From a virus, in the IMG/VR virus record IMGVR_UViG_3300047678_000666, positions 1 to 41,468 of that record: a stretch of DNA of 41,468 nucleotides. One strand, written 5' to 3'. The translations under genes and the position numbers were made by a program. Below the pieces are notes generated by a model. It was given only the letters and a program-made list of their open reading frames with translations. It searched no databases and had not been told where the DNA came from. Of this stretch, positions 2,498 to 40,747 are shown in pieces; position 1 is the first letter of the stretch, and every line of letters starts with the position of its first letter.

Positions 2498-3016
2498 TTA
2501 GGTCAGATTTTTTAAGGATTTTGTTGCCACGCCATGAATTATCAGTTCATCATTTCTATTAATTTCTATTGGTTTATATCGAGAATTTTCAGGCAAAAGG
2601 GAAACCTTGTCTTTTGTTTTATAAAACCGTTTTACTGTGGTCTGTCCATTAATCGACGCTACGACAATTTTCTTGCTACGCGGTTCGATACTGCGGTCGA
2701 CAAATAATAAGTCACCATCATCGATGCCTGCGTCAATCATAGAATCTCCGGTGACGCGCAGCAGAAAAGTTTCCCGTGGGTTACTAAGCAGCAGCTTAGA
2801 AAGCTCCGGCATATTAGCGATATCATTTCCAGCGGGTGATGGTGATCCTGCCGGAACACGCGACGCATACAGTGGTAGGCGATAGCCACGCGCGGCAAGA
2901 AAATCCGCTACACCTTTCACCATACTTTCCGGTATGCGCATCGGGCGTGTGGCTTCACCCCACGGGCCTTTGCCTTTCGGTCGTCCTGCGCCGCGTCTTT
3001 TTCCGCCGCTCGGCAT
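2498..3016 (-). CDS. LexA/UmuD-like S24-family autoproteolytic repressor
   Basis: A 172-residue S24 peptidase-type protein, probably the SOS-responsive lysogeny repressor. The catalytic serine is in VTGDSMIDAGIDDGD (about residue 93) and the lysine in QTTVKRFYK (about residue 128). A likely self-cleavage Ala-Gly bond lies in SRVPAGSPSP (about residues 55-57). The N-terminus is not a classical HTH. It starts with a basic GGKRRGAGRPKGKG segment and RPMRIPES, as in UmuD-like proteins associated with polymerase V, but no UmuC partner is present. It is transcribed leftward, divergent from the early genes, as expected for a phage immunity repressor. An alternative is a UmuD-like SOS accessory protein. 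Confidence 0.85.
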   Translation of the reverse strand: MPSGGKRRGAGRPKGKGPWGEATRPMRIPESMVKGVADFLAARGYRLPLYASRVPAGSPSPAGNDIANMPELSKLLLSNPRETFLLRVTGDSMIDAGIDDGDLLFVDRSIEPRSKKIVVASINGQTTVKRFYKTKDKVSLLPENSRYKPIEINRNDELIIHGVATKSLKNLT

Positions 3017-3108: not shown

Positions 3109-3765
3109 ATGCCACTGCCTGATAAAGCTTATGTTTATTTGCCTCAGTTGATGCGTCGCTGGCAAACCGACATGGCCGACCTACGGGATTATGCAGAGCA
3201 AGGCCAGCTTGAAATTCAGATCTGGCTGGATGAATCCATCGTCAAGGTTTATCGCTTAAAGAAAACGGAAGATGGGGAAATTGCACCGGTGTCGACCGGG
3301 ATCATAAATTACAAAGGCTATGTTATTTTAGAGCCATTCAAGGTGCGGAGAATTTTCCGCGAACAAAAAGCCATGATCCATAAATTCACGTCACTTGATC
3401 GCAAAGAGCTTTTCAAGCTGCCGCAAAGTGAAGGCTGTCCTGTATCAGTAGATGACCTGATGGTCAGTCGCGCAGAACGCGACCGCTTCGAGATCGCAAA
3501 TCAAATCACGCCAATAAACGGTTCATATTATCCCGGTATATCTCCCGATACGAAAACCGGCATCGTGCCGATCTCTGCCGGGCGGCCCAGCATTATGAAA
3601 CGAATTACTGAACAGCATTTGGCGCGCGTGGCCAAAGGCGAGGCTTTATCGCCCATGACGGCAGAAGCCAGGTATTTGCGCGGCTGGGCGCGCGACGCCA
3701 TACCGGGCGCGCAAATTCCCGCCGCTAAGACGATTCTCAATAATCTGTCTTCCAAAGCCGTCTAA
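3109..3765 (+). CDS. Hypothetical early protein, probable DNA-binding regulator
   Basis: A 218-residue protein, first gene rightward of the repressor. I do not recognise the N-terminal two thirds, which begin PLPDKAYVYLPQLMRRW and include a segment that looks like the MerR-type wing. The C-terminal ~60 residues (GRPSIMKRITEQHLARVAKG...AARYLRGWA-like...KTILNNL) resemble a short module that ends many alphaproteobacterial phage proteins and follows the pattern A-P-x-K-T-I-x-N. The position between the repressor and a dense operator-like array suggests an early regulator, possibly of its own downstream region. That function is inferred from context only. Confidence 0.6.
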   Translation: MPLPDKAYVYLPQLMRRWQTDMADLRDYAEQGQLEIQIWLDESIVKVYRLKKTEDGEIAPVSTGIINYKGYVILEPFKVRRIFREQKAMIHKFTSLDRKELFKLPQSEGCPVSVDDLMVSRAERDRFEIANQITPINGSYYPGISPDTKTGIVPISAGRPSIMKRITEQHLARVAKGEALSPMTAEARYLRGWARDAIPGAQIPAAKTILNNLSSKAV

Positions 3766-3768
3766 GGC

Positions 3769-3881
3769 TTCCCGAAATTATTCCTGAAATCTTCCCGATA
3801 TTTCGGGAAACCAAAACTACCGTCATTTTCTTCGCGCCGCCGCGCCTGAATTTCAGGAAAATTTCAGGCGTATATCGGGAA
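3769..3881 (+). promoter_or_regulatory. Array of seven operator-like 10-mers with ~11-bp phasing
   Basis: The non-coding stretch between 3765 and 3934 carries the half-site TTCCYGAAAT in forward orientation at 3769, 3781 and 3792 (last copy TTCCCGATAT). The reverse orientation (ATTTCRGGAA type) is at 3800, 3850, 3861 and 3872, with some deviation in the last two. Copies are spaced 11 or 12 bp within each group, so they face the same side of the helix. Sites at 3792 and 3800 form an 18-bp palindrome, and 3843-3870 forms an inverted repeat CGCCTGAA/TTCAGGCG. It looks like a cooperative operator or iteron array controlling the early operon that starts at 3934. Confidence 0.75.
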
Positions 3882-3933: not shown

Positions 3934-4155
3934 TTGGAAACCAACCATCTCAATCAAAACGAATTAGCAAAGCGCTGGAAATTATCCGAGCGAACTCTTG
4001 AGCGCTGGCGCTGGCTGGGCGTTGGGCCAACTTATCTCAAGCTTGGCGGTCGTGTCGTTTACCGGCTCTCCGATATAGAGGAATTCGAAAAGAAAAACGC
4101 TAAGCAAATCGAAAGCGACGCATCAGCTTTTGCGGAAAAGGCAGGTGTCGCATGA
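3934..4155 (+). CDS. Small HTH_17/excisionase-like protein, third separate copy
   Basis: A 73-residue winged-HTH protein of the same family as 1892 and 2151: NQNELAKRWKLSERTLERW, WLGVGPTYLKLGGR, then VVYRLSDIEEFEKK. It starts at TTG 3934, supported by AGGAGG five bases upstream. The same frame has no better ATG. Its stop overlaps the start of the nuclease gene (ATGA), so the two are translationally coupled. It lies directly downstream of the operator-like array and is probably the first gene of the replication/recombination operon, where it could autoregulate. Confidence 0.85.
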   Translation: METNHLNQNELAKRWKLSERTLERWRWLGVGPTYLKLGGRVVYRLSDIEEFEKKNAKQIESDASAFAEKAGVA

Positions 4156-4928
4156 ACGCCTTTCAGCATTACGGCATCAGCCATCTTTCCGCATCCTCCC
4201 TCAATCTTTACGCCGCTGAACCCGCTTTGTGGCTTCTGGAACGCCTGCTTGGCTACAAGCACGGCAGCAGCGCCGTCATGGCGCGTGGCAAGGCGGTCGA
4301 AGCCGGTGTGCATCTCGGCCTTAATCAACCCCTCCTGTCCGTCGAGGCCAGCATCGGCAAAGCCGAACAGGAATACGACCGCGAAATGGCGCTGGTGCCG
4401 GACGAGCGCCGCGCTGATGAGCGCAAAAACATTCCGGGTTATGTCACGCACGCGCTGGCCGAGCTGCGGCAGTACGGCGCGCCAACCGCCTATCAGGAGA
4501 AAATCGAAATCCGCCTGCCTGATCTTTCGGTTCCACTGATCGGTTATATCGATTGGCGGTTTGATCAGCACGGCATCGTTGTCGATCTCAAAACCAGCGA
4601 ACGGTTGCCCGGCGGCATTTCCGACCCGCACGCTCGGCAGGGCGCAATCTATGCCACGGCGCATGGCAATTACGGCATGCGCTTTTGCTACGCCAAACCG
4701 GTGCCGGGCAAGAAAGACGGCAGAGCGGTTGCCGTTTATGAAATGTCCGGTGACGAAGTGCAGCGGCACCTGATTGCGCTCGGCATCATCGCCAAGAAAC
4801 TTGAACGCTTTCTGTCGCTGTCACGCGACGCGCGGGAACTCGCGGCCATTCTCTGTCCCAACTACGAAAGCTTTTTTTGGTCAAACCCCGAGGCCAGAGC
4901 CAATGGCCGCGCGGTTTTCGGTTTCTAA
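4152..4928 (+). CDS. PD-(D/E)XK phage-type exonuclease (RecB/Cas4-like fold)
   Basis: A 258-residue nuclease. The conserved pieces are a helix with MARGKAVEAGVHLGL (the GxxxH region), the core IGYIDWRF then GIVVDLKTSER (Asp, then D-x-K), and a QGAIYA glutamine motif. This is the layout of phage exonucleases that resect double-stranded DNA for recombination or genome processing. It overlaps the upstream HTH gene by four bases and precedes a probable ssDNA-binding protein, so the pair resembles a Red-type exonuclease plus partner module. Exact polarity and substrate cannot be read from the sequence. Confidence 0.85.
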   Translation: MNAFQHYGISHLSASSLNLYAAEPALWLLERLLGYKHGSSAVMARGKAVEAGVHLGLNQPLLSVEASIGKAEQEYDREMALVPDERRADERKNIPGYVTHALAELRQYGAPTAYQEKIEIRLPDLSVPLIGYIDWRFDQHGIVVDLKTSERLPGGISDPHARQGAIYATAHGNYGMRFCYAKPVPGKKDGRAVAVYEMSGDEVQRHLIALGIIAKKLERFLSLSRDARELAAILCPNYESFFWSNPEARANGRAVFGF

Positions 4929-4958
4929 CAGTTCATCAACCAGCAGAGGAGAAGTCAC

Positions 4959-5594
4959 ATGCCATTAAATATCGGTGCATCCGGAACCATCAGACCCTAC
5001 GCCAAATACAATTCCAAGGCCGACAAATGGTTCGCCAAAGGGCCGGAAGGCGACGTGGAAATTGGCCGCCCTGCCTTCGTGGCGGATTTCGCCAACATTG
5101 CCACCGGCTGGCTGCTGTTCCGCGAAGGCCAAGCGCCGGAGCGTGTCATTGATCCATCGCTTGATCATTCCGCGCCGTCGCCCGGCGAAGGCTTCAAGCG
5201 CGGCTTTGTTCTTGCCGTGTTTAGCCCGAAGTTTTTTGGCGGCATGGCGGAATTGTCGTCGGCTTCCATCCATTTCTGTAACGCCCTCCGCGAGGTCTAT
5301 CAGAAATTCGAGGAAGACCGCGCCAGTCATCCCGGCCAGTTGCCGGTGATCGCCTGCACCGGCTCGGAAGCGATGAAGGACAAGTACGGCACCAACTACA
5401 AGCCGAAGCTTGAAATCAGCAAATGGGTGGATCGCCCGGTCGAGCTGCCGGATCAAAGCCCGGTTGACCCGACCGACATTTGGAAAGGTTCAAACGCACC
5501 CGCCAAGGCCCAGCAAGGCACGGCTGTTGCGCCGCCCGCTCCGAAACCCGCGCCGCAACCAGCGGGAAATCCGCTGGCTGAAGCCGAATTCTGA
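4959..5594 (+). CDS. Conserved phage protein, putative ssDNA-binding/recombination partner
   Basis: A 211-residue protein of a family I recall from phages next to exonuclease or primase genes, usually left as hypothetical. The recognisable parts are IRPYAKYNSKADKWF at the N-terminus, RPAFVADFANIATGW, a serine-rich middle with MAELSSASIHFCNAL, and the strongly conserved KDKYGTNYKPKLEISKWV. The last ~45 residues are an Ala/Pro-rich linker ending in LAEAEF, an acidic-hydrophobic tip like that of SSB proteins. Ssb-like function is inferred from that tip and from the neighbouring exonuclease and primase-helicase. AGAGGAG lies about ten bases before the ATG. Confidence 0.65.
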   Translation: MPLNIGASGTIRPYAKYNSKADKWFAKGPEGDVEIGRPAFVADFANIATGWLLFREGQAPERVIDPSLDHSAPSPGEGFKRGFVLAVFSPKFFGGMAELSSASIHFCNALREVYQKFEEDRASHPGQLPVIACTGSEAMKDKYGTNYKPKLEISKWVDRPVELPDQSPVDPTDIWKGSNAPAKAQQGTAVAPPAPKPAPQPAGNPLAEAEF

Positions 5595-5605
5595 TCCTTC
5601 CTCCC

Positions 5606-7846
5606 ATGCAGACGTTACGGGCCATTTCACGCGTGCAGCCGTTGATCGAACCTTCTTTGGAAATGATGCAGCGGCATCTGGAACACCTGTTCGGCGGGTT
5701 TCTTGACGGCTGCCATGATGGCCTTATCGAAATTGCCCATACGGATACGCATGACCGCAAGCTGAAACATGCCCGCCTCTTCGGCACCGATGAAATCGAA
5801 AAGGCGGCGCAGTTTGCTTTCGAGCAAAACCGGTTGCCGGGTCAGAATGTTTATGTTGGCGCGGCCTTGAGAAAACCCGAAGCGCCACGCGACCGGCGCG
5901 CCAGCGACGATGACGTGCTGTGCCTGCCAGCTTTCTACACAGATCTTGATCAGGATGAAGCGGCCAAGCTGGCAAAGCAGCGTTATCGCGGCTGCCCGCC
6001 CACCTGCGTAGTGGTGACAGGCCGTAAGCCGCATGTCCGCGCGCAGTTATGGTGGCTTCAGGAAGCGCCGGAGCGCGATCCCGCGCGCATTCGCCAGCAG
6101 AACGCGGCGCTGGCCGCTGCGCTTGGCGGCGACAGCACGGTTGTTAACCCGTCGCGCGTCATGCGCCTTGCCGGTTCAATCGCGTGGCCGCATAAGCCAG
6201 GTCGCGTGCTAGAACGCACGGAATTGCAATCTTTCACGGATGGCCGCCCGCGCAGCTATGCCGAAGGCCAGCTTGCGAAAGCCTTCCCCGCGGTTGAAGA
6301 AAAGTCTGCGCCGCCGAAGCCAACACCTACGCTTAACATCGGCACGCCTGATCCGCTATCGGTCGAGGCCGCACTACAAGCGGTCAAGTCGGGTTATCAA
6401 TGGCACAATAACCTTCTGCGCCTTGTCGCTCACTGGGTTGCGCGCAACTGGTCGGACGCTGAAATCATCGCCGCGACCGAAAGCCTGACGCTGCCCGGCT
6501 ACAGGGCAGATCAAACGCGCCGAGAGGTTTTGCAGATGATCCTCGGCGCGCGCGCCAAATGGGCCATCCCAGATCCAGCCAACAAGCTTGATGAAATCTC
6601 CAGCTCGCCGCTGCTGATTTCTTTTGTCCACGATCTCAATATCGCCATGCTGCCGCAGCGAAAATGGATGTTGGGGCGTTGCCTTCTATGCGGCCATTTA
6701 AGCCTGCTGGTTGCGCCGCCGGGCGTTGGAAAATCCACACTTTGTATCGCCCTTGGCGTGGCCGTGGTCACCGGCAAGAATATCACCGGCCATACCGTGC
6801 ATCAGTCCGGCAAGGTATGGATTTACAACAACGAAGATGACGAAGACGAGCTGAAGCGCCGCCTTGCCGCCGTGCTTCAGCATCATGGCCTGACGCTGGA
6901 CGACATCAAGGACAGGCTGGCCATCAACAGCGGATCAGACCGGCCATTGCTTTTCGCCAAGACGCAAACCAATGGCGGCGTGCTGCGCCTGCCGGATGTC
7001 GAAGCCTGCATCGCCCACATCAAGGCTAACGACATCAAGGTTTTTATTGCCGATCCCTTTGTTGAAACCCATGAGGTCGAGGAAAACAGCAATGAGCAAA
7101 TAAAAGTCGTGGCGCAGATGTTCCGCGAGATCGCGCGCCGCACAGGTTGCGCCGTTCTGTTGGTGCATCACACGGCCAAACCGCCGCAAGGATCGTCGGA
7201 CGGCCATGCCGGAAATATGCACACGGCGCGCGGCGCAAGCGCGCTTGTCGGCGTTGCGCGCGTGGTGGTGACGCTGTTTGGCATGAGCAACCGCGATGCC
7301 GAGCGCTATAGCGTGCGAGACGAAGACCGGCACCTTTACGCCCGCCTTGATGATGCCAAAGCCAATTTGAGCCTCGCTTCACCTAACGCCCTGTGGTTCA
7401 GGCGGGCCAGCGTCACCATCGCCAATGGCGATGAGGTAGGCGTGTTGGAAACGGTCGAACTGGCTTCCGCTCCCAAACCGGACAGCCACGAAGAGGATGA
7501 GCGGAAAACCGTCATCGCTTGCTTGCTGGCGCAAATTCAGGAACCGGAAATCTCCCTCAACGCGGCGGCAAAGCAGTTGGCATGGAGCGGTGACGAACGC
7601 TTCGCCCAATACCGCCAGACCGACGACAAAGGCAACCGCCGCGCCTCGCGCACGTTGCGCGAAATCATCGTCACGGCCTGCCGCATGAACACCGTCATCG
7701 TCAATGACGGCATGGTGTCCGGCTTCACGGCGAACATGGCCAAAAAACCGGTCACGCTAAAGCGTTTCTCACGCGCCTTCGGCACGCCGGAGCTGGCCGC
7801 TTCCGCACCTGAACTTTGGCCCGAAACGGAGGATATGGATGACTAA
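5606..7846 (+). CDS. Primase-helicase fusion (AEP-type primase plus RepA-like AAA ATPase)
   Basis: A 746-residue replication protein. Residues ~1-230 carry an archaeo-eukaryotic-type primase: DLD in AFYTDLDQDEA, a histidine in TGRKPHVRAQLWW and an aspartate in LGGDSTVVNPSRVMRLAG. After a linker and a helical domain, residues ~345-560 form a RepA/RecA-like hexameric helicase with Walker A APPGVGKST, Walker B KVFIADPF and the sensor VLLVHHTAK. The C-terminal ~140 residues may bind DNA. It would prime and unwind the phage origin, perhaps the repeat-rich stretch right after its stop. The ATG at 5606 has only a weak ribosome-binding site, and a start at residues 20-21 (MM) is possible. Confidence 0.88.
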   Translation: MQTLRAISRVQPLIEPSLEMMQRHLEHLFGGFLDGCHDGLIEIAHTDTHDRKLKHARLFGTDEIEKAAQFAFEQNRLPGQNVYVGAALRKPEAPRDRRASDDDVLCLPAFYTDLDQDEAAKLAKQRYRGCPPTCVVVTGRKPHVRAQLWWLQEAPERDPARIRQQNAALAAALGGDSTVVNPSRVMRLAGSIAWPHKPGRVLERTELQSFTDGRPRSYAEGQLAKAFPAVEEKSAPPKPTPTLNIGTPDPLSVEAALQAVKSGYQWHNNLLRLVAHWVARNWSDAEIIAATESLTLPGYRADQTRREVLQMILGARAKWAIPDPANKLDEISSSPLLISFVHDLNIAMLPQRKWMLGRCLLCGHLSLLVAPPGVGKSTLCIALGVAVVTGKNITGHTVHQSGKVWIYNNEDDEDELKRRLAAVLQHHGLTLDDIKDRLAINSGSDRPLLFAKTQTNGGVLRLPDVEACIAHIKANDIKVFIADPFVETHEVEENSNEQIKVVAQMFREIARRTGCAVLLVHHTAKPPQGSSDGHAGNMHTARGASALVGVARVVVTLFGMSNRDAERYSVRDEDRHLYARLDDAKANLSLASPNALWFRRASVTIANGDEVGVLETVELASAPKPDSHEEDERKTVIACLLAQIQEPEISLNAAAKQLAWSGDERFAQYRQTDDKGNRRASRTLREIIVTACRMNTVIVNDGMVSGFTANMAKKPVTLKRFSRAFGTPELAASAPELWPETEDMDD

Positions 7847-13720: not shown

Positions 13721-14329
13721 TCAAGGTTTTGTTTCCAGATGCTCTTGTCGCGCTGCCTGCCAAACTTCGCGCGCGGCGCTGGCATTCATGACTGCGATGC
13801 CTAAACCGACGATCAAATCCGGCCAAGCCGACACCGTATAGGCGGTCAGGAGTCCGGCTGCAATGATAGCGACATTCGCCAGCGTGTCATTGCGGGCCGA
13901 GAGAAAGGCAGCTTTTGTGAGGCTGCCACCATGTTTGCGATAGCGTGCCAGAATAAAAGCGCAGGTCAGGTTGACTGCAAACGCGCCCGCGCCCGTGAGG
14001 GAAAGCGATACCGGATCGGGCGGAACGGGAAGATTGAATTTTTCCCAAGCCATCCACAATGCGGCGAGACCGGGAATTAGCAGAATACCCGCAAGCCCCA
14101 TGCCCAAACGCGCTCGCCATCGTGTTGTCCAGCCGAGCGCGACAAAGATGAGAAGGTTGATCGAAGCATCCTCAAGAAAATCGATGCTGTCGGCGAATAG
14201 GGAAACCGAGCCGATGGCAATAGCGACGGCAAACTCCACGCCGAAATAGGCGAGGTTCAGCAACGCCACGATCAAAACGGCGCGGCGAAGTGGTTTATCG
14301 GAAGATTCAAAATCTAGCTTATCGCTCAC
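13721..14329 (-). CDS. Cation diffusion facilitator (CDF)-type efflux protein, moron
   Basis: A 202-residue membrane protein with about six hydrophobic segments. It belongs to the cation efflux family: TM1-2 reads LNLAYFGVEFAVAIAIGSVS then LFADSIDFLEDASIN with the acidic TM2 metal-site residues, and TM5 has SARNDTLANVAIIAAG, where the Asp is kept but the usual His four residues earlier is not. The C-terminal cytoplasmic domain of full-length CDFs (about 300 residues) is absent. It would export divalent metal from the lysogen. It starts at GTG with AAGGAG nine bases upstream. It is wedged leftward between terminase and gpW, its stop four bases from the terminase stop, so it is cargo. Confidence 0.8.
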   Translation of the reverse strand: MSDKLDFESSDKPLRRAVLIVALLNLAYFGVEFAVAIAIGSVSLFADSIDFLEDASINLLIFVALGWTTRWRARLGMGLAGILLIPGLAALWMAWEKFNLPVPPDPVSLSLTGAGAFAVNLTCAFILARYRKHGGSLTKAAFLSARNDTLANVAIIAAGLLTAYTVSAWPDLIVGLGIAVMNASAAREVWQAARQEHLETKP

Positions 14330-25566: not shown

Positions 25567-26322
25567 TTAGTGTTGCTTTCCAGCTTTTTGTCTGGAGATC
25601 AAGATACAAGTCACCATAAATAAGAGGAGCGCAGCCGACGCAGAATAACGACTTAACGCTAGTCCACCTGACGCTAAAGGTTTGTCAAGAAAATCGCCCA
25701 GCGTAGCGCCAAGAGGACGCGTTAAGATGAAAGCCGCCCAAAACAAAAAGGTTCGAGAAATTCTTGTCCAAAAATAGGCGGCAACAACGAGTGCAAGTAA
25801 AATGCTGAATACGACTGCCCCACCCACATATCCTAGGCCTGCCGTGTCCGCCGTCCAGTCGCCCAGCGCGGTGCCTAAGGTTTGGGAAAACATGATCGTT
25901 ACCCAATAAAACATTTCGGCTTTTGGTGAATTGATGGCGCTGACCGACACGGTACCAAGCGACTTATACCAAATCGTCAAAGATGCAGCTAACAGGCAAA
26001 GCAATAATGTAGATCCTCCTGCATAGCCAATTCCAAGCGAACGATCCGCGAAATCCGCCAACGTTGTTCCAACGGTTGTCGTTGCAATAATAGTTGCCCA
26101 ATAAAGAAACGGATGAAATTTCTTTGCTTTAATTTGGGCGACTACGGCAACCAGAAAAATAACCGCAAAAATAGCCGTTCCGATCAAATATCCGAGATTC
26201 ATCGACATAGAAACAGCATCGCCGCCGGTCTCACCTAATGTGGTAGCAGCGATCTTGATAATCCAGAAAGCCAGCGTGACTTGGGGAACCTTGCTTAAAC
26301 GTGCTTCAGATGTCGCACTCAT
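25567..26322 (-). CDS. DUF347/COG4705-type multi-repeat membrane protein, moron
   Basis: A 251-residue integral membrane protein with about eight transmembrane segments. Four internal repeats follow a TLGxxxGD pattern: KIAATTLGETGGD, TTTVGTTLADFADRSLGIGY, SQTLGTALGDWTADTAGLGY and TRPLGATLGDFLDKPLASGG. This is the DUF347 (COG4705) family, of unknown or metal-linked function, often next to PepSY genes. Repeated acidic residues inside the membrane suggest ion handling. It reads divergently from the DUF2460 tail gene, and AGGT precedes the ATG. An AT-rich stretch upstream (TTACATTTTATAGG on the minus strand) may hold its promoter. Confidence 0.85.
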   Translation of the reverse strand: MSATSEARLSKVPQVTLAFWIIKIAATTLGETGGDAVSMSMNLGYLIGTAIFAVIFLVAVVAQIKAKKFHPFLYWATIIATTTVGTTLADFADRSLGIGYAGGSTLLLCLLAASLTIWYKSLGTVSVSAINSPKAEMFYWVTIMFSQTLGTALGDWTADTAGLGYVGGAVVFSILLALVVAAYFWTRISRTFLFWAAFILTRPLGATLGDFLDKPLASGGLALSRYSASAALLLFMVTCILISRQKAGKQH

Positions 26323-35738: not shown

Positions 35739-37883
35739 TTACGCTGCGTTCGCATAAACGCAAGGTTTCGCCGCTGATGGCGCAACAAACACAGGCCACC
35801 AGAATGGAAAACCACCCCATCCTTTTTCCTTATCGCCGGACTCTTCGAACAGCATAAAGATAGGGTCGTTTACCGCAAACTTTTGCTGGATGTTTCTGTC
35901 CTTATCAGAGTCATCTGGCTTATCGGCATAACGGCCTGATGGACGAACTCTCCGGATTCCTCTTCCTGTGTTTGCGAGCAGATAAAGTTTTTTTGAGGAT
36001 CCTTCAATCTGGCTGGCCTTGCAGTAATAGTCTATGGCTGTGTGCATGGCATCCCAATTCCATGCGGTATCTTCAATTTCAAACGTTTCTTGTATCAGGT
36101 CGAGAATCTGATGACACAGTTGTGAATCTACAAGCAATGGCCTGTCCGTATCTACGCATTCATTCGGCAACAAATCTCTGATGCGCGCGACTGTTTTCTC
36201 GATCTTATATTTTGGTAAAGATTGAAAACCTACCGGCAACAGGCGTCCGCCCGGCTTAATGGAATAAACCTCGGACATTTTGATCTTGGATGGGGCGCAA
36301 GGCATGATTTGTCGCGCAGCATCAGTTTGGATAAAGACAACACCCCTGTCATGCGCGCCAGTTTCAAAGGCATGCCGTAACATTTCCTCAAGCTCATGAA
36401 TCTTTTTCAGTCGGTCATAAACAATTCGTGATGTGTAAAATCTGGTCACGGCAAGATCAGACCTGTCACGATTGCCATACATGCGGGAATGCTGGAGCAC
36501 CGTGTCGGCTTGCATCGTTTTCGGATTACGCCCGTAATAAAACCCCATAAGGTTTGGAACGGTAATGCCACGATCAAGAATATTTCCACCGATGAAAATG
36601 TTGAACGGTGTCCTGAGCTTAAGTTCGCTATTCTCATCCAGCAGCGCGCTGACCTGTTGATCTGAATTGACACGTTCCTTCATAACGTCACCGCCGATAA
36701 GCGCTTTACACACCTCACCGAAACACAAATTTGCCGAAGGCATATTGCCCTTATTGGCCGTGACAGATTGTTTAAGGTTTTCGTAACACTCATCAAATAA
36801 TGCGCGCAGATCAGCAGCTTTAGTTTCCGCTCTCTTGGCAAACAGATCAAGAAGTTTACCTACCGTTTCCCATTGGTAATCGTGCGCTTTTCGCTGCGTA
36901 TCATTATGTATGATCAGGGAGAATTTTTTGTTGGGGCGCTCACCAGCTTCTTTGAGCTGCCAGTGCCGGACAACGACTGCTGTAATGAAATTTAGGAGTG
37001 CAAATCTCAACATTCTAACTTTTGGCGAGGTCATCAGGTGTTCAGTGCGCGTTTGCCTACCGTCAATCGCGCGCAGAACATCCTGCTCGTCGAGTGGCAC
37101 TTCCATATACAAGAACGATCTATGATTGGTATCGTCAAAGTCACCAAAATAATCCTCACCGCCAACATACTTTGAATGGATCGGCAACAGCTCGGTGAAG
37201 GCGGGCTTCTTTGGCAAAAAGACATATTCGTTCGGGCCTTGCGCCGTATATGCATCGGGCTGTAGATATAACGCGTAAGGTGTTGCCGTCACTTGCAGGA
37301 AAGCCATAGAGGCAACGATATGCCGAAGGTTATCAATCTGCTGGGCAATTTTACCCTGATCGATGTCATCCTCGTCCTTCTTCTTCACAAATCTAACGCT
37401 GGCCAAATCGGCCTCGTCATCCACGAGAAGAACCCTTCTCTTGCTAAAGGTAGGCTGGTCTGACTCAAACAGTTTGAGTATCCGTTCCAGATTTTTGTGC
37501 TGTTTCTTAGCAACGAAAATAAGTTTTTGGCGCGTCTCGAAGCTGGTCAGTTCTTGAGGCATGCTCATAATATCGAAGATTTTTAATTCATCTTCCTTAT
37601 CGAAATCCTGATAATCTTTTTTCAATCGGCTGACCGTCTGAGCCGATAAGGCCTTGGTGCCTTTCGTCAGGACGATGGCAATATCAAATCCCTCATCAAA
37701 AGCTTTTGCGATGATGCCAAGAAAGGCCATCGTTTTGCCGGACTGAATTTTTCCGAGCAGCATGCCCGGCTGCCCCAGTGAGGTTGTCGTTTTCGACAGA
37801 TGTCGGACAACATTTTCAATGCAGTTTTTTAACTCGGGGGTGTCACCGCGTTTTTCGCTTAACCTAGAGTAAAGAGTATTCAT
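35739..37883 (-). CDS. Z1-domain superfamily 2 helicase-like protein
   Basis: A 714-residue protein with helicase-type motifs: Walker A LGKIQSGKTMAFLG (about residue 45), the Walker B box VLLVDDEADLAS (about 152), TATPYALYLQP, the Z1-typical FIGGNILDRGITVPNLMGFY (about 430) and motif VI VLQHSRMYGNRD (about 468). Z1-domain proteins are found in defence gene clusters with methyltransferases, MutL-like ATPases and nucleases (work by Aravind and co-workers). They are thought to remodel DNA using ATP. No nuclease motif is seen in this protein. Nuclease activity could be supplied by a partner. It is divergent from the RHH-MTase-Res operon. Confidence 0.88.
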   Translation of the reverse strand: MNTLYSRLSEKRGDTPELKNCIENVVRHLSKTTTSLGQPGMLLGKIQSGKTMAFLGIIAKAFDEGFDIAIVLTKGTKALSAQTVSRLKKDYQDFDKEDELKIFDIMSMPQELTSFETRQKLIFVAKKQHKNLERILKLFESDQPTFSKRRVLLVDDEADLASVRFVKKKDEDDIDQGKIAQQIDNLRHIVASMAFLQVTATPYALYLQPDAYTAQGPNEYVFLPKKPAFTELLPIHSKYVGGEDYFGDFDDTNHRSFLYMEVPLDEQDVLRAIDGRQTRTEHLMTSPKVRMLRFALLNFITAVVVRHWQLKEAGERPNKKFSLIIHNDTQRKAHDYQWETVGKLLDLFAKRAETKAADLRALFDECYENLKQSVTANKGNMPSANLCFGEVCKALIGGDVMKERVNSDQQVSALLDENSELKLRTPFNIFIGGNILDRGITVPNLMGFYYGRNPKTMQADTVLQHSRMYGNRDRSDLAVTRFYTSRIVYDRLKKIHELEEMLRHAFETGAHDRGVVFIQTDAARQIMPCAPSKIKMSEVYSIKPGGRLLPVGFQSLPKYKIEKTVARIRDLLPNECVDTDRPLLVDSQLCHQILDLIQETFEIEDTAWNWDAMHTAIDYYCKASQIEGSSKKLYLLANTGRGIRRVRPSGRYADKPDDSDKDRNIQQKFAVNDPIFMLFEESGDKEKGWGGFPFWWPVFVAPSAAKPCVYANAA

Positions 37884-37924
37884 TGCGCGCCTCGGTTGAT
37901 TATAATGAAATAGCTGTTAATCTC

Positions 37925-37958
37925 AAATTCCGTGGTGCACAATACACCATAAATTCCG
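37925..37958 (+). promoter_or_regulatory. Operator-like inverted repeat within direct repeats, divergent promoter region
   Basis: In the 111-bp divergent region between the Z1 and RHH genes, TGGTG/CACCA (37933-37949, 7-base loop) is bracketed by two direct repeats AAATTCCG at 37925 and 37951. An RHH protein encoded next to it is the natural candidate to bind. A TATAAT-like TTATAAT lies about 25 bases to the left. Confidence 0.6.
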
Positions 37959-37994
37959 ACCTTCAAAACAGTTACCCTTCAGAGATATCAGAAA

Positions 37995-38183
37995 ATGCCC
38001 GTGACTGAAAAAAAGCGCGTTCGCACCTCCGTCATTCTACCGGGTGATGTATACGAAAAAGTCGCCAGTTTAGCGGAAAAGAACGATATTTCAGTCGCGT
38101 GGGTAATCCGGCAGGCTATCATCCGTTTCCTGAAAGATCAGGGCAATACCAAGCACCTAAAGCTTGATAAGAAAGCTGAATAA
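37995..38183 (+). CDS. Ribbon-helix-helix (CopG-type) regulator
   Basis: A 62-residue protein with the RHH pattern: a beta strand VRTSVILP, then helix DVYEKVASLAEKNDIS and helix VAWVIRQAIIRFLKDQ, and a basic tail. Such small proteins form dimers that repress their own operon. It starts 36 bases past the palindrome in the divergent promoter region and lies 23 bases ahead of the MTase gene, so it likely controls expression of the restriction-modification genes, perhaps also of Z1. Confidence 0.82.
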   Translation: MPVTEKKRVRTSVILPGDVYEKVASLAEKNDISVAWVIRQAIIRFLKDQGNTKHLKLDKKAE

Positions 38184-38206
38184 CGCAATGTGTGAGGAGC
38201 TAAAGA

Positions 38207-40747
38207 ATGCCAAGAATTAAAGCGGCCAATAAGGCCGCCGGTAAAGCGGAGAAAAAACGTGAAATCGGCGCTTACACGCATGAAGATAAAACGCGGGCTT
38301 ATAACCCGCCGGTGGGTCTCGTGACCCCGGATACCGACCAAGACAGCGATAAAAAATCCTACGCCTATGATCCCCATCTCGACCCTCAGTTGGTCTGGGC
38401 TGGAAAGGCGGAACATACCTCGTTCGAGGTTCCGACAGTGTCACTGCATGTGCATGAGCGAATCGACCCTAAAACCATCATTCAATCTGTTAAGAAAAAG
38501 AACGGCGGTGGTCAGTCGGATTTGTTCCATTGGGCTGAGGAAGCGCGACCGATCCGTGAAGCAATTGAGTTTTACAAACACAAAAACAATTGGTCGAACC
38601 GCCTGATCGCTGGTGACAGCCTGCTGGTTATGAACAGCCTGCTGGAAAAAGAAGGCATGGCCGGTCAGGTACAGATGGTCTATATCGACCCACCCTATGG
38701 AATTAAATATGGTTCAAACTTTCAGCCGTTTACAAATAATAAAAATGTTAAGGATGGCAGTGATGAAGATTTAACTTCTGAGCCAGAAACCGTAAAGGCT
38801 TTTCGAGACACATGGGAACTTGGCATTCATTCTTATTTGGCTTATTTGCGAGACCGGCTACTGCTGACGCGCGATCTCCTAACTGATAGTGGGAGTGTCT
38901 TTGTTCAGATAAGTGACGAGAATATCCATCTAGTAAGAAGTGTGCTTGATGAAGTTTTTAACAAAGAAAACTTTGTAAGTTTAATTAGTTTTGCAACCAC
39001 ACGAGGGTTTGCCTCAACAACTATATCGCGGGCTGGCGATTATTTGTGCTGGTATTGTAAAGATAAATCGAAGGTCAAATATCGCCCGCTTTATCGAGAA
39101 AAAAGTCTTGAACAGGGCATAGGAACTTCCTACTACGAGTTTGTTGAGCTAAGCGATGGTGTTTGTCGTCGTTTAACGGCAGACGAAATAGCAAACCCAA
39201 CAATTATTCCTGGCGGGTCAAAAGTTTATAGCCAAAGCAATCTATCTGCAAAAGGGCTGCCAAGCTCCTCTCAGCCATTTGAATTCAAAGGAAAGAAATT
39301 TTATCCGAATTCAGGATGCCACTGGAAAGTCAAATATCCAGAGGGATTGGAACGTCTTGCTCAACTTAACCGAATTGAAATTGTAGGAAACACCTTAAAG
39401 TTCAAAAAGTATTTACAGGATGCTCCGATCGTTCAGATTAACAACTTATGGTCTGAACAGATGTCCGAGCAGAACAAAGATTATGTTGTGCAAACATCTA
39501 CAAAGGTTCTGCAGCGCTGCCTTTTGATGACCACGGATCCTGGGGATCTGGTATTTGATCCAACGTGTGGTAGTGGCACGACCGCTTATGTGGCCGAGCA
39601 GTGGGGGCGACGTTGGACTACTTGTGACACATCGCGCGTAGCCCTGACTTTAGCAAAACAACGTCTAATGACTTGTAATTTTGATTATTTTGAATTGGCC
39701 CGTCGTGCAGAGGGAATAGCTGGAGGATTCGAGTATAAAACAGCCCCTCACATTACTTTAGGCTCTATAGCAAACAACGAGCCTTCTCCAAATGAAGCCT
39801 TATATGACCAGCCTAAAATAGACAAAGCTAAAGCAAGGGTATCTGGCCCATTTACAGTTGAGGCTGTGCCAGCACCAATAGTGAAATCGCTTGATGATAT
39901 TAAGGAGCAGCCTGTTGGCGATATAAGCATATCACGTTCAGGAGAGACGCTGCGTCAAGCTGACTGGCAAGATGAGCTCCTAAAAGCAGGTATTCGCGGC
40001 AAGGGTGGCCAACGGATCGACTTCTCACGGGTTGAACCGCTTGCAGGCACACGTTACTTACATGCCGACGCCGAAACCAAAGGTGCCTCACCTGAACGGG
40101 TCGTGATTTCCTTTGGCCCTGATCATGCGCCGCTGGAGCAGCGACAGGTTGCGATGGCTTTAGAAGAAGCGCAACGCCTCGTGCCAAAACCTAAGATCGT
40201 TGTTTTTGCGGCGTTCCAGTTTGATCCAGAAGCAGCCAAAGACATTGACGAAACTAACTGGCCGGGCGTCACCTTGCTCAAAGCGCAAATGAATGCCGAC
40301 CTTCTCACTGAAGATTTGAAAAAGAAACGTGCCAGCAACGAAAGCTTCTGGCTGATTGGTCAGCCGGACGTCAAAGCTTTAGCCATCGATAAAGGTGAAG
40401 ATAAGGGTAAGTTTAAAGTCGAGGTCATGGGTTTTGATTATTACGATACCCGCACAGGTGAAATCGTCTCCGGCGGTTCGGATAGAATCGCTATGTGGCT
40501 ACTCGACACTGATTACGATGGCCGGAGCTTGTTTCCACGTCAGGTTTTCTTCCCTATGGCCGGTAGCGGTGAAGGATGGGGGAGACTGTCGAAAAACCTG
40601 AGAGCCGAGATCGATGAAGAAAAAATCGAAGCTTTCTACGGCACGATCTCTATTCCTTTCGATGTTGGCGAACACAAACGCGTAGCCGTCAAAATCATTG
40701 ATGATCGCGGCATTGAAAGCCTAAAGATTATCGAACTGCAGAGTTAA
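38207..40747 (+). CDS. Type III-like site-specific DNA methyltransferase (Mod)
   Basis: An 846-residue adenine methyltransferase. The catalytic motif IV is in VYIDPPYGIKYGSNF (about residue 165) and the AdoMet motif in LVFDPTCGSGTTAYVAEQW (about residue 448), the beta-class order used by type III Mod proteins. The ~280 residues between them are the likely target recognition domain. The C-terminal ~270 residues (from about VGDISISRSGETLRQADWQD) are a separate conserved domain of this family. GAGGAG eight bases upstream supports the ATG. Base composition is markedly more AT-rich from about 38700 to 39950, covering the recognition domain, than in the ends of the gene. It pairs with the helicase-nuclease gene that follows. 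Confidence 0.9.
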   Translation: MPRIKAANKAAGKAEKKREIGAYTHEDKTRAYNPPVGLVTPDTDQDSDKKSYAYDPHLDPQLVWAGKAEHTSFEVPTVSLHVHERIDPKTIIQSVKKKNGGGQSDLFHWAEEARPIREAIEFYKHKNNWSNRLIAGDSLLVMNSLLEKEGMAGQVQMVYIDPPYGIKYGSNFQPFTNNKNVKDGSDEDLTSEPETVKAFRDTWELGIHSYLAYLRDRLLLTRDLLTDSGSVFVQISDENIHLVRSVLDEVFNKENFVSLISFATTRGFASTTISRAGDYLCWYCKDKSKVKYRPLYREKSLEQGIGTSYYEFVELSDGVCRRLTADEIANPTIIPGGSKVYSQSNLSAKGLPSSSQPFEFKGKKFYPNSGCHWKVKYPEGLERLAQLNRIEIVGNTLKFKKYLQDAPIVQINNLWSEQMSEQNKDYVVQTSTKVLQRCLLMTTDPGDLVFDPTCGSGTTAYVAEQWGRRWTTCDTSRVALTLAKQRLMTCNFDYFELARRAEGIAGGFEYKTAPHITLGSIANNEPSPNEALYDQPKIDKAKARVSGPFTVEAVPAPIVKSLDDIKEQPVGDISISRSGETLRQADWQDELLKAGIRGKGGQRIDFSRVEPLAGTRYLHADAETKGASPERVVISFGPDHAPLEQRQVAMALEEAQRLVPKPKIVVFAAFQFDPEAAKDIDETNWPGVTLLKAQMNADLLTEDLKKKRASNESFWLIGQPDVKALAIDKGEDKGKFKVEVMGFDYYDTRTGEIVSGGSDRIAMWLLDTDYDGRSLFPRQVFFPMAGSGEGWGRLSKNLRAEIDEEKIEAFYGTISIPFDVGEHKRVAVKIIDDRGIESLKIIELQS

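What the first reader, a model, noticed from the sequence alone, without database searches (positions are those of the whole stretch)
3769..3881. Helically phased array of 10-bp half-sites ahead of the early operon
Seen: TTCCYGAAAT-type half-sites at 3769, 3781, 3792 in one direction and 3800, 3850, 3861, 3872 in the other, spaced 11-12 bp within groups. Same-face spacing implies cooperative binding of a protein along DNA. The two groups point toward each other across about 40 bp, which would suit looping. The arrangement is not the usual three-operator repressor region, and the adjacent genes (an unrecognised protein at 3109 and an HTH protein at 3934) are candidate binders.
Basis: seen in the sequence. 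Interest (0 to 1): 0.7.

Follow-up and report, generated by a model that had tools for sequence, protein, structure and literature searches.

The report
Phased operator array, phage early promoter
The repeated 10-base sites ahead of this prophage's early genes are real, and related phages keep the same layout with changed letters and often repeat it beside the integrase gene, so they look like a row of docking sites for one phage DNA-binding protein that sets both early gene expression and integration or excision.

Summary
The array is real and not chance. It has seven half-sites (3769-3881, TTTC-oriented consensus ATTTCRGGAA), spaced 11-12 bp within groups, in the intergenic space before the early operon (HTH_17 gene, exonuclease, a conserved 211-aa gene, helicase-primase). 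It is conserved in position and phasing but not in letters: L025, with the same gene order, has ATTTCGTGCA sites, and about 20 rhizobial-type relatives have TTTCNGCC sites at mostly 10-bp spacing. The last site lies 62 bp before the start codon in window and L025, and 74-78 bp before it in most relatives. Arrays go with the neighbouring 218-aa protein X (3109-3765; phrog_13283, unknown function), not with the HTH_17 gene alone: 17 of 21 X loci, 0 of 8 X-less loci. In at least seven relatives the same array also lies 70-122 bp upstream of the integrase gene. This matches dual-purpose excisionase/regulators such as Apl of phage 186, P2-type Cox and RdfS. The window's own integrase region has no such array. 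Best reading: a head-to-tail, cooperatively bound operator for a phage-encoded regulator, with X slightly favoured over the HTH_17 protein. Binding itself is inferred. The S24 repressor and a replication-origin role are less likely.

The parts
3769..3809 (.). Distal cluster: three half-sites in TTCCYGAAAT orientation (3769, 3781, 3792) and one opposite (3800), the last two forming an 18-bp palindrome
3850..3881 (+). Proximal cluster: three direct half-sites ATTTCAGGAA, ATTTCAGGCG, ATATCGGGAA at 11-bp spacing, ending 52 bp before the early operon's first start codon
   Evidence: same orientation and the same 62-bp site-to-start distance as L025
3109..3765 (+). Protein X, 218 aa, phrog_13283 family (function unknown): predicted N-terminal wHTH-like domain, beta region, C-terminal three-helix domain; favoured binder of the array
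   Evidence: co-occurrence with arrays
3934..4155 (+). HTH_17 (excisionase-type wHTH) protein, first gene of the early operon; alternative binder
4152..7846 (+). Early operon downstream of the array: PD-(D/E)XK exonuclease (4152-4928), conserved 211-aa protein (4959-5594), helicase-primase (5606-7846)
2498..3016 (-). S24/UmuD-like peptidase-repressor, divergent from X; less likely binder

Best explanation
The array is an operator for a phage-encoded, excisionase-type regulator. Its monomers bind head to tail on half-sites one helical turn apart and so coat the stretch just upstream of the early-operon start, controlling early transcription, most likely by repression. In many relatives a second array of the same half-sites upstream of int lets one protein couple early gene expression to integrase expression or excision, as Apl does in phage 186. 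X (3109-3765) is the slightly favoured binder (about 50%), the HTH_17 protein at 3934 the main alternative (about 35%). Shown: the array, its conserved position and phasing with drifting letters, its co-occurrence with X, and the second array at int in relatives. Inferred: binding, cooperativity, sign of regulation, and which protein binds. In the window itself only the early array is seen.
For: Non-randomness. L025 has the same gene order and a phased array of a related half-site in the same gap. Rhizobial-type relatives: phased TTTCNGCC arrays at the same place, spacings 10 bp x40, 11 bp x11, 12 bp x7, with the last site 74-78 bp before the start in 16 of 18 measured loci. Association with X: 17 of 21 X loci have a phased chain of 3 or more, against 0 of 5 X-less loci with kilobases of upstream sequence (p=0.002) and 0 of 8 counting truncated ones (p=0.0001) (X searched with a profile). 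On the exonuclease tree X-less, array-less L017 sits inside the window/L025 clade and L065 inside the rhizobial-type clade. Integrase arrays: L037, L053, L066, L067, L078, L083, L087 and, weaker, L097; in a profile scan of 1606 windows the top 17 were all early or integrase arrays. Record G011 (L087) keeps X and an integrase array but has no HTH_17 domain. The hth recognition segment RTLERWRW is identical in window, L025 and array-less L016/L017 although half-sites differ. Precedent: PMC7498355, PMC11963761.
Against: No binding data. Nearly every array locus carries both X and an HTH_17 gene, so they are confounded; L087 is one, possibly incomplete, record. L098 has both genes but no clear array; L099 and L074 have X without an array noticed. 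The window's integrase region has no significant site. X-less loci may have had the whole regulatory region swapped. X's fold matched nothing with significance. No sigma-70-like promoter was found by a simple scan, so the array's relation to a promoter is not shown. Loci are related, so the Fisher p values overstate independence.
Confidence: 0.7

Rival explanations
1. [quoted passage not shown] X is a bystander or partner.
For: HTH_17 resembles excisionase families. It is the first early gene and the array is always directly upstream of it. Apl, Cox and RdfS have a similar gene position or site layout. Most array loci with int also have this gene.
Against: Eight loci with closely related HTH_17 genes but no X lack arrays. 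Its recognition segment is the same between loci with different half-sites and between loci with and without arrays. G011 has an int array and no HTH_17.
Confidence: 0.35
2. The array is the operator of the S24/UmuD-like repressor (2498-3016), giving SOS-controlled repression of the early operon.
For: It lies next door, and S24 repressors commonly control phage early promoters (general knowledge). L025 shares it at 51% identity.
Against: Most relatives with arrays have no such S24 gene; L053, for example, has an XRE/ImmA pair and L073 a WYL regulator. No half-site occurs in the S24-X divergent promoter. The protein has only a short N-terminal arm and no recognised HTH.
Confidence: 0.08
3. The array is a set of initiator iterons, a replication origin for the downstream helicase-primase.
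For: Phased repeats beside replication genes; L025 has a perfect DnaA box inside its array.
Against: No exact DnaA box in the other 22 regions examined. The same array recurs upstream of int, where an origin is not expected. Some rhodobacteral relatives have separate repeats about 23 bp apart that look more like iterons.
Confidence: 0.06
4. The inverted sites act as RNA: a terminator or hairpin after gene X.
For: The transcript folds better than shuffles (z -4.3), through the palindromes.
Against: No T-run terminator was found there. Relatives have mostly direct, not inverted, repeats, which cannot make the hairpin.
Confidence: 0.03

Closest known systems
Apl protein and its operators, bacteriophage 186 (PMC7498355)
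   Same: Direct repeats 10-11 bp apart; one set at the early switch region and, in the relatives, one set near att/int; an excisionase-type gene opens the early operon.
   Different: In the window there is no int array and some sites are inverted; the best-correlated protein is X, an unrelated two-domain family; binding not shown.
RdfS of ICEMlSym R7A (PMC11963761)
   Same: Alphaproteobacterial wHTH directionality factor that binds attP and its own promoter and oligomerises.
   Different: RdfS sites show no consensus motif; here there is a clear half-site in each phage.
P2-type Cox and lambda Xis arrays (as described in PMC7498355)
   Same: Cooperative head-to-tail binding to repeats one helical turn apart.
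   Different: Lambda Xis is described there at att sites; Cox-type sites lie between face-to-face promoters, which are not demonstrated here.

Membership tests
Excisionase-type dual regulator system (Apl/Cox-like) | Direct repeats spaced one helical turn apart | tested here: met
   Window 11-12 bp; relatives mostly 10 bp; the window's distal cluster is partly inverted
Excisionase-type dual regulator system (Apl/Cox-like) | Sites at the early switch region | tested here: met
   Fixed position before the early operon in window and relatives
Excisionase-type dual regulator system (Apl/Cox-like) | Similar sites at att/int | tested here: inconclusive
   Met in relatives (L037, L053, L066, L067, L078, L083, L087, weakly L097), not met in the window itself
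Excisionase-type dual regulator system (Apl/Cox-like) | HTH excisionase-type protein as first gene of the early operon | tested here: met
   HTH_17 at 3934-4155
Excisionase-type dual regulator system (Apl/Cox-like) | Cooperative binding, DNA bending, stimulation of excision | not testable with these tools
   needs purified protein and recombination assays
Lambdoid cI/cro three-operator region | Three spaced palindromic operators between divergent repressor and early promoters | tested here: not met
   Half-sites at one-turn spacing; the S24 gene is 750 bp away across gene X
Iteron replication origin | DnaA box near iterons | tested here: not met
   None in the window; exact box only in L025
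phrog_13283 (protein X) | Profile match | tested here: met
   Window protein E=0.0022; all 18 aligned members match, best 3e-81

The most novel reading that the evidence does not exclude
Family X (phrog_13283) is a previously uncharacterised class of phage master regulator that coats one-turn-phased half-sites at both the early promoter and the integrase promoter/att arm, with binding letters that drift between phage lineages while phasing and distance to the start codon stay fixed.
Probability: 0.45. Interest if true: 0.62.

Novelty: new variant of a known kind. Interest (0 to 1): 0.5.

Why it matters
It gives a first, testable role to an unknown phage protein family found in the early regions of alphaproteobacterial prophages, and a set of natural half-site variants (GGGAA, GTGCA, NGCC) on one conserved scaffold. 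That set could be used to map which residues read the DNA and to ask how a regulator's specificity changes while its cooperative geometry is kept.

Tried and rejected
A DNA-pattern search of viral contigs with the exact half-site pair gave 13 hits; the two examined in detail (L006, L007) were in unrelated contexts. Single-protein searches with the window's X found no relative in viral contigs, genome contigs or phage and plasmid records; relatives came only through neighbouring genes and then an X alignment. No X relative was found in the phage record collection. Searching bacterial relatives by taxonomy was not possible because the window is a virus record. A first profile comparison of X families included the window itself; it was redone without it (E=1.7e-8, 95%). 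Structure searches of two X models gave no significant match; BldC and Pukovnik Xis appear only as weak hits (E about 1 and above). Origin, terminator and S24-operator readings were tested and ranked low.

Full report
Observation. Written in one orientation they are ATTTCGGGAA, ATTTCAGGAA, ATATCGGGAA (distal cluster, - strand), ATTTCGGGAA (3800, +), then ATTTCAGGAA, ATTTCAGGCG, ATATCGGGAA (proximal cluster, +). An unbiased count that does not use this motif finds 6 related 9-mers here. That is the highest of all 140-bp windows in the record, and 2000 dinucleotide shuffles of the stretch never gave more than 4. Elsewhere in the 41 kb the motif occurs only singly.

Context. The array fills the gap between gene X (3109-3765) and an operon that begins with an HTH_17 protein (3934) and continues with a PD-(D/E)XK exonuclease, a conserved 211-aa protein and a helicase-primase. 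Leftward of X lies a divergent S24/UmuD-like gene. The integrase gene at 311 follows a tRNA-Met.

Relatives. Searches with the helicase, the 211-aa protein and the exonuclease brought in relatives. L025 has the same order S24, X (41%), gap, HTH_17, exonuclease, 211-aa protein, helicase. Its gap holds phased ATTTCGTGCA sites, so position and phasing are kept and three of the ten letters differ. About 20 further relatives form a separate clade, which I call rhizobial-type (the label is my guess at the hosts; these contigs carry no organism names). In L053, read in full, an XRE/ImmA pair stands in place of S24, with X as the third gene of that leftward operon. Upstream of their HTH_17 gene these phages carry TTTCNGCC repeats. 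Adjacent repeats are 10 bp apart 40 times, 11 bp 11 times and 12 bp 7 times. The last one starts 74-78 bp before the start codon in 16 of 18 loci measured. In window and L025 that distance is 62 bp in both. Many of these arrays are bipartite, with clusters 92-95 bp apart.

Which protein goes with the array. With a motif-free test (chain of at least three related 8-mers 10-13 bp apart within 350 bp of the HTH_17 start) 17 of 21 X loci score, and the other four carry shorter runs of similar sites. None of 5 X-less loci with kilobases of upstream sequence, and none of 8 counting truncated ones, score. The background rate of such chains is 15 in 550 stretches, and at least one of those 15 (L053 1-350) turned out to be an integrase array described below. 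Two loci with arrays but no X detected (L046, L056) are cut off before X could appear. On the exonuclease tree X-less L017 nests with window and L025, and X-less L065 nests among the rhizobial-type phages. That makes simple common descent of the array with the exonuclease unlikely, although these phages may have swapped the whole regulatory block. Within loci that have a window-type HTH_17 gene the split is 2 of 2 with X against 0 of 8 without (p=0.02). The HTH_17 recognition segment is the same in window, L025, L016 and L017, so it does not track the half-site.

Protein X. X matches phrog_13283, unknown function, in all 18 aligned members. A profile comparison made without mixing the families gives E=1.7e-8 over 117 N-terminal columns. 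AlphaFold models (pLDDT 78 and 81) show N-terminal helices followed by a long beta hairpin (read here as wHTH-like), a beta region, a low-confidence linker and a C-terminal three-helix domain. No solved or viral structure matches significantly. A weak alignment of the X N-terminus to the HTH_17 family exists and is a lead only.

Second array at int. Scanning relatives showed the same half-sites 70-122 bp upstream of the integrase gene in L037 (four sites at 10 bp), L053, L066, L067, L078, L083 and L087, and weaker in L097 and L075. In L037 the array lies between what reads as a tRNA-Met end and int. A profile from early arrays, with the tested clade left out, scored these at empirical p 0.002-0.012; the background includes the arrays themselves, so these p values are conservative. 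In 1606 background windows the 17 highest scores were all early or integrase arrays. The window's own int region and that of L098 have none. Record G011 (L087) keeps X and an integrase array while lacking any HTH_17 domain, and has lost its early array to a replacement of the early region.

Interpretation. Repeats one helical turn apart, at the early switch and at the integrase/att region, are the hallmark of excisionases that double as regulators: Apl of phage 186, and Cox of the P2-like phages, are encoded by the first early gene and bind head to tail with high cooperativity (PMC7498355). RdfS binds attP and its own promoter (PMC11963761). The window array most likely works this way at the early promoter. 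The gene position of the HTH_17 protein fits Apl best; the presence pattern and G011 fit X better. I give X about 50%, HTH_17 about 35%. Binding, cooperativity and repression are inferred from geometry and precedent.

Verdict. The feature is real, conserved in geometry, of a known mechanistic kind, and tied to an uncharacterised protein family. The looping idea remains possible but is not specifically supported.

Noticed in passing
311-1837: The integrase carries a C-terminal HTH_17 (excisionase-like) domain at residues 456-505, an unusual fusion.
   Followed up: no
1892-2110 and 2154-2366: Two tandem, closely similar HTH_17 genes right after the integrase, possibly the window's own excision factors, which might explain the missing int array.
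   Followed up: partly
2498-3016: UmuD-like S24 protein with a short GRPKGKGPWGE...RIPES arm and no recognised HTH, conserved in L025.
   Followed up: partly
L053 5190-5215 and other rhizobial-type loci: Conserved ATGTTC-type repeats near the start of the ImmA-like gene, perhaps the operator of the XRE repressor, separate from the X-associated array.
   Followed up: no
L073 3088-3234, L075 4131-4218, L097 3865-3942, L098 1620-1769: Other short repeats, often about 23 bp apart, in rhodobacteral-type relatives; in L073 they lie inside an HTH-protein gene, so they may be iterons of a replication origin.
   Followed up: no
L053 107-117, L037 about 2388-2400, L066 about 1850-1862: Conserved GAGCATCTTGC between the integrase-upstream array and the int start in several relatives.
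   Followed up: no
L087 1882-4176: An ATPase-like gene stands where the early array and HTH_17 gene would be, and the ImmA-like gene is truncated, while X and the integrase array remain.
   Followed up: partly
35739-40747: Large minus-strand protein at 35739-37883 and a probable DNA methyltransferase at 38207-40747 on the plus strand, which look like restriction or defence cargo (by eye).
   Followed up: no
13721-14329 and 25567-26322, minus strand: Two membrane-protein ORFs, one resembling a cation-efflux transporter, set against the direction of the structural genes (possible cargo genes; by eye).
   Followed up: no
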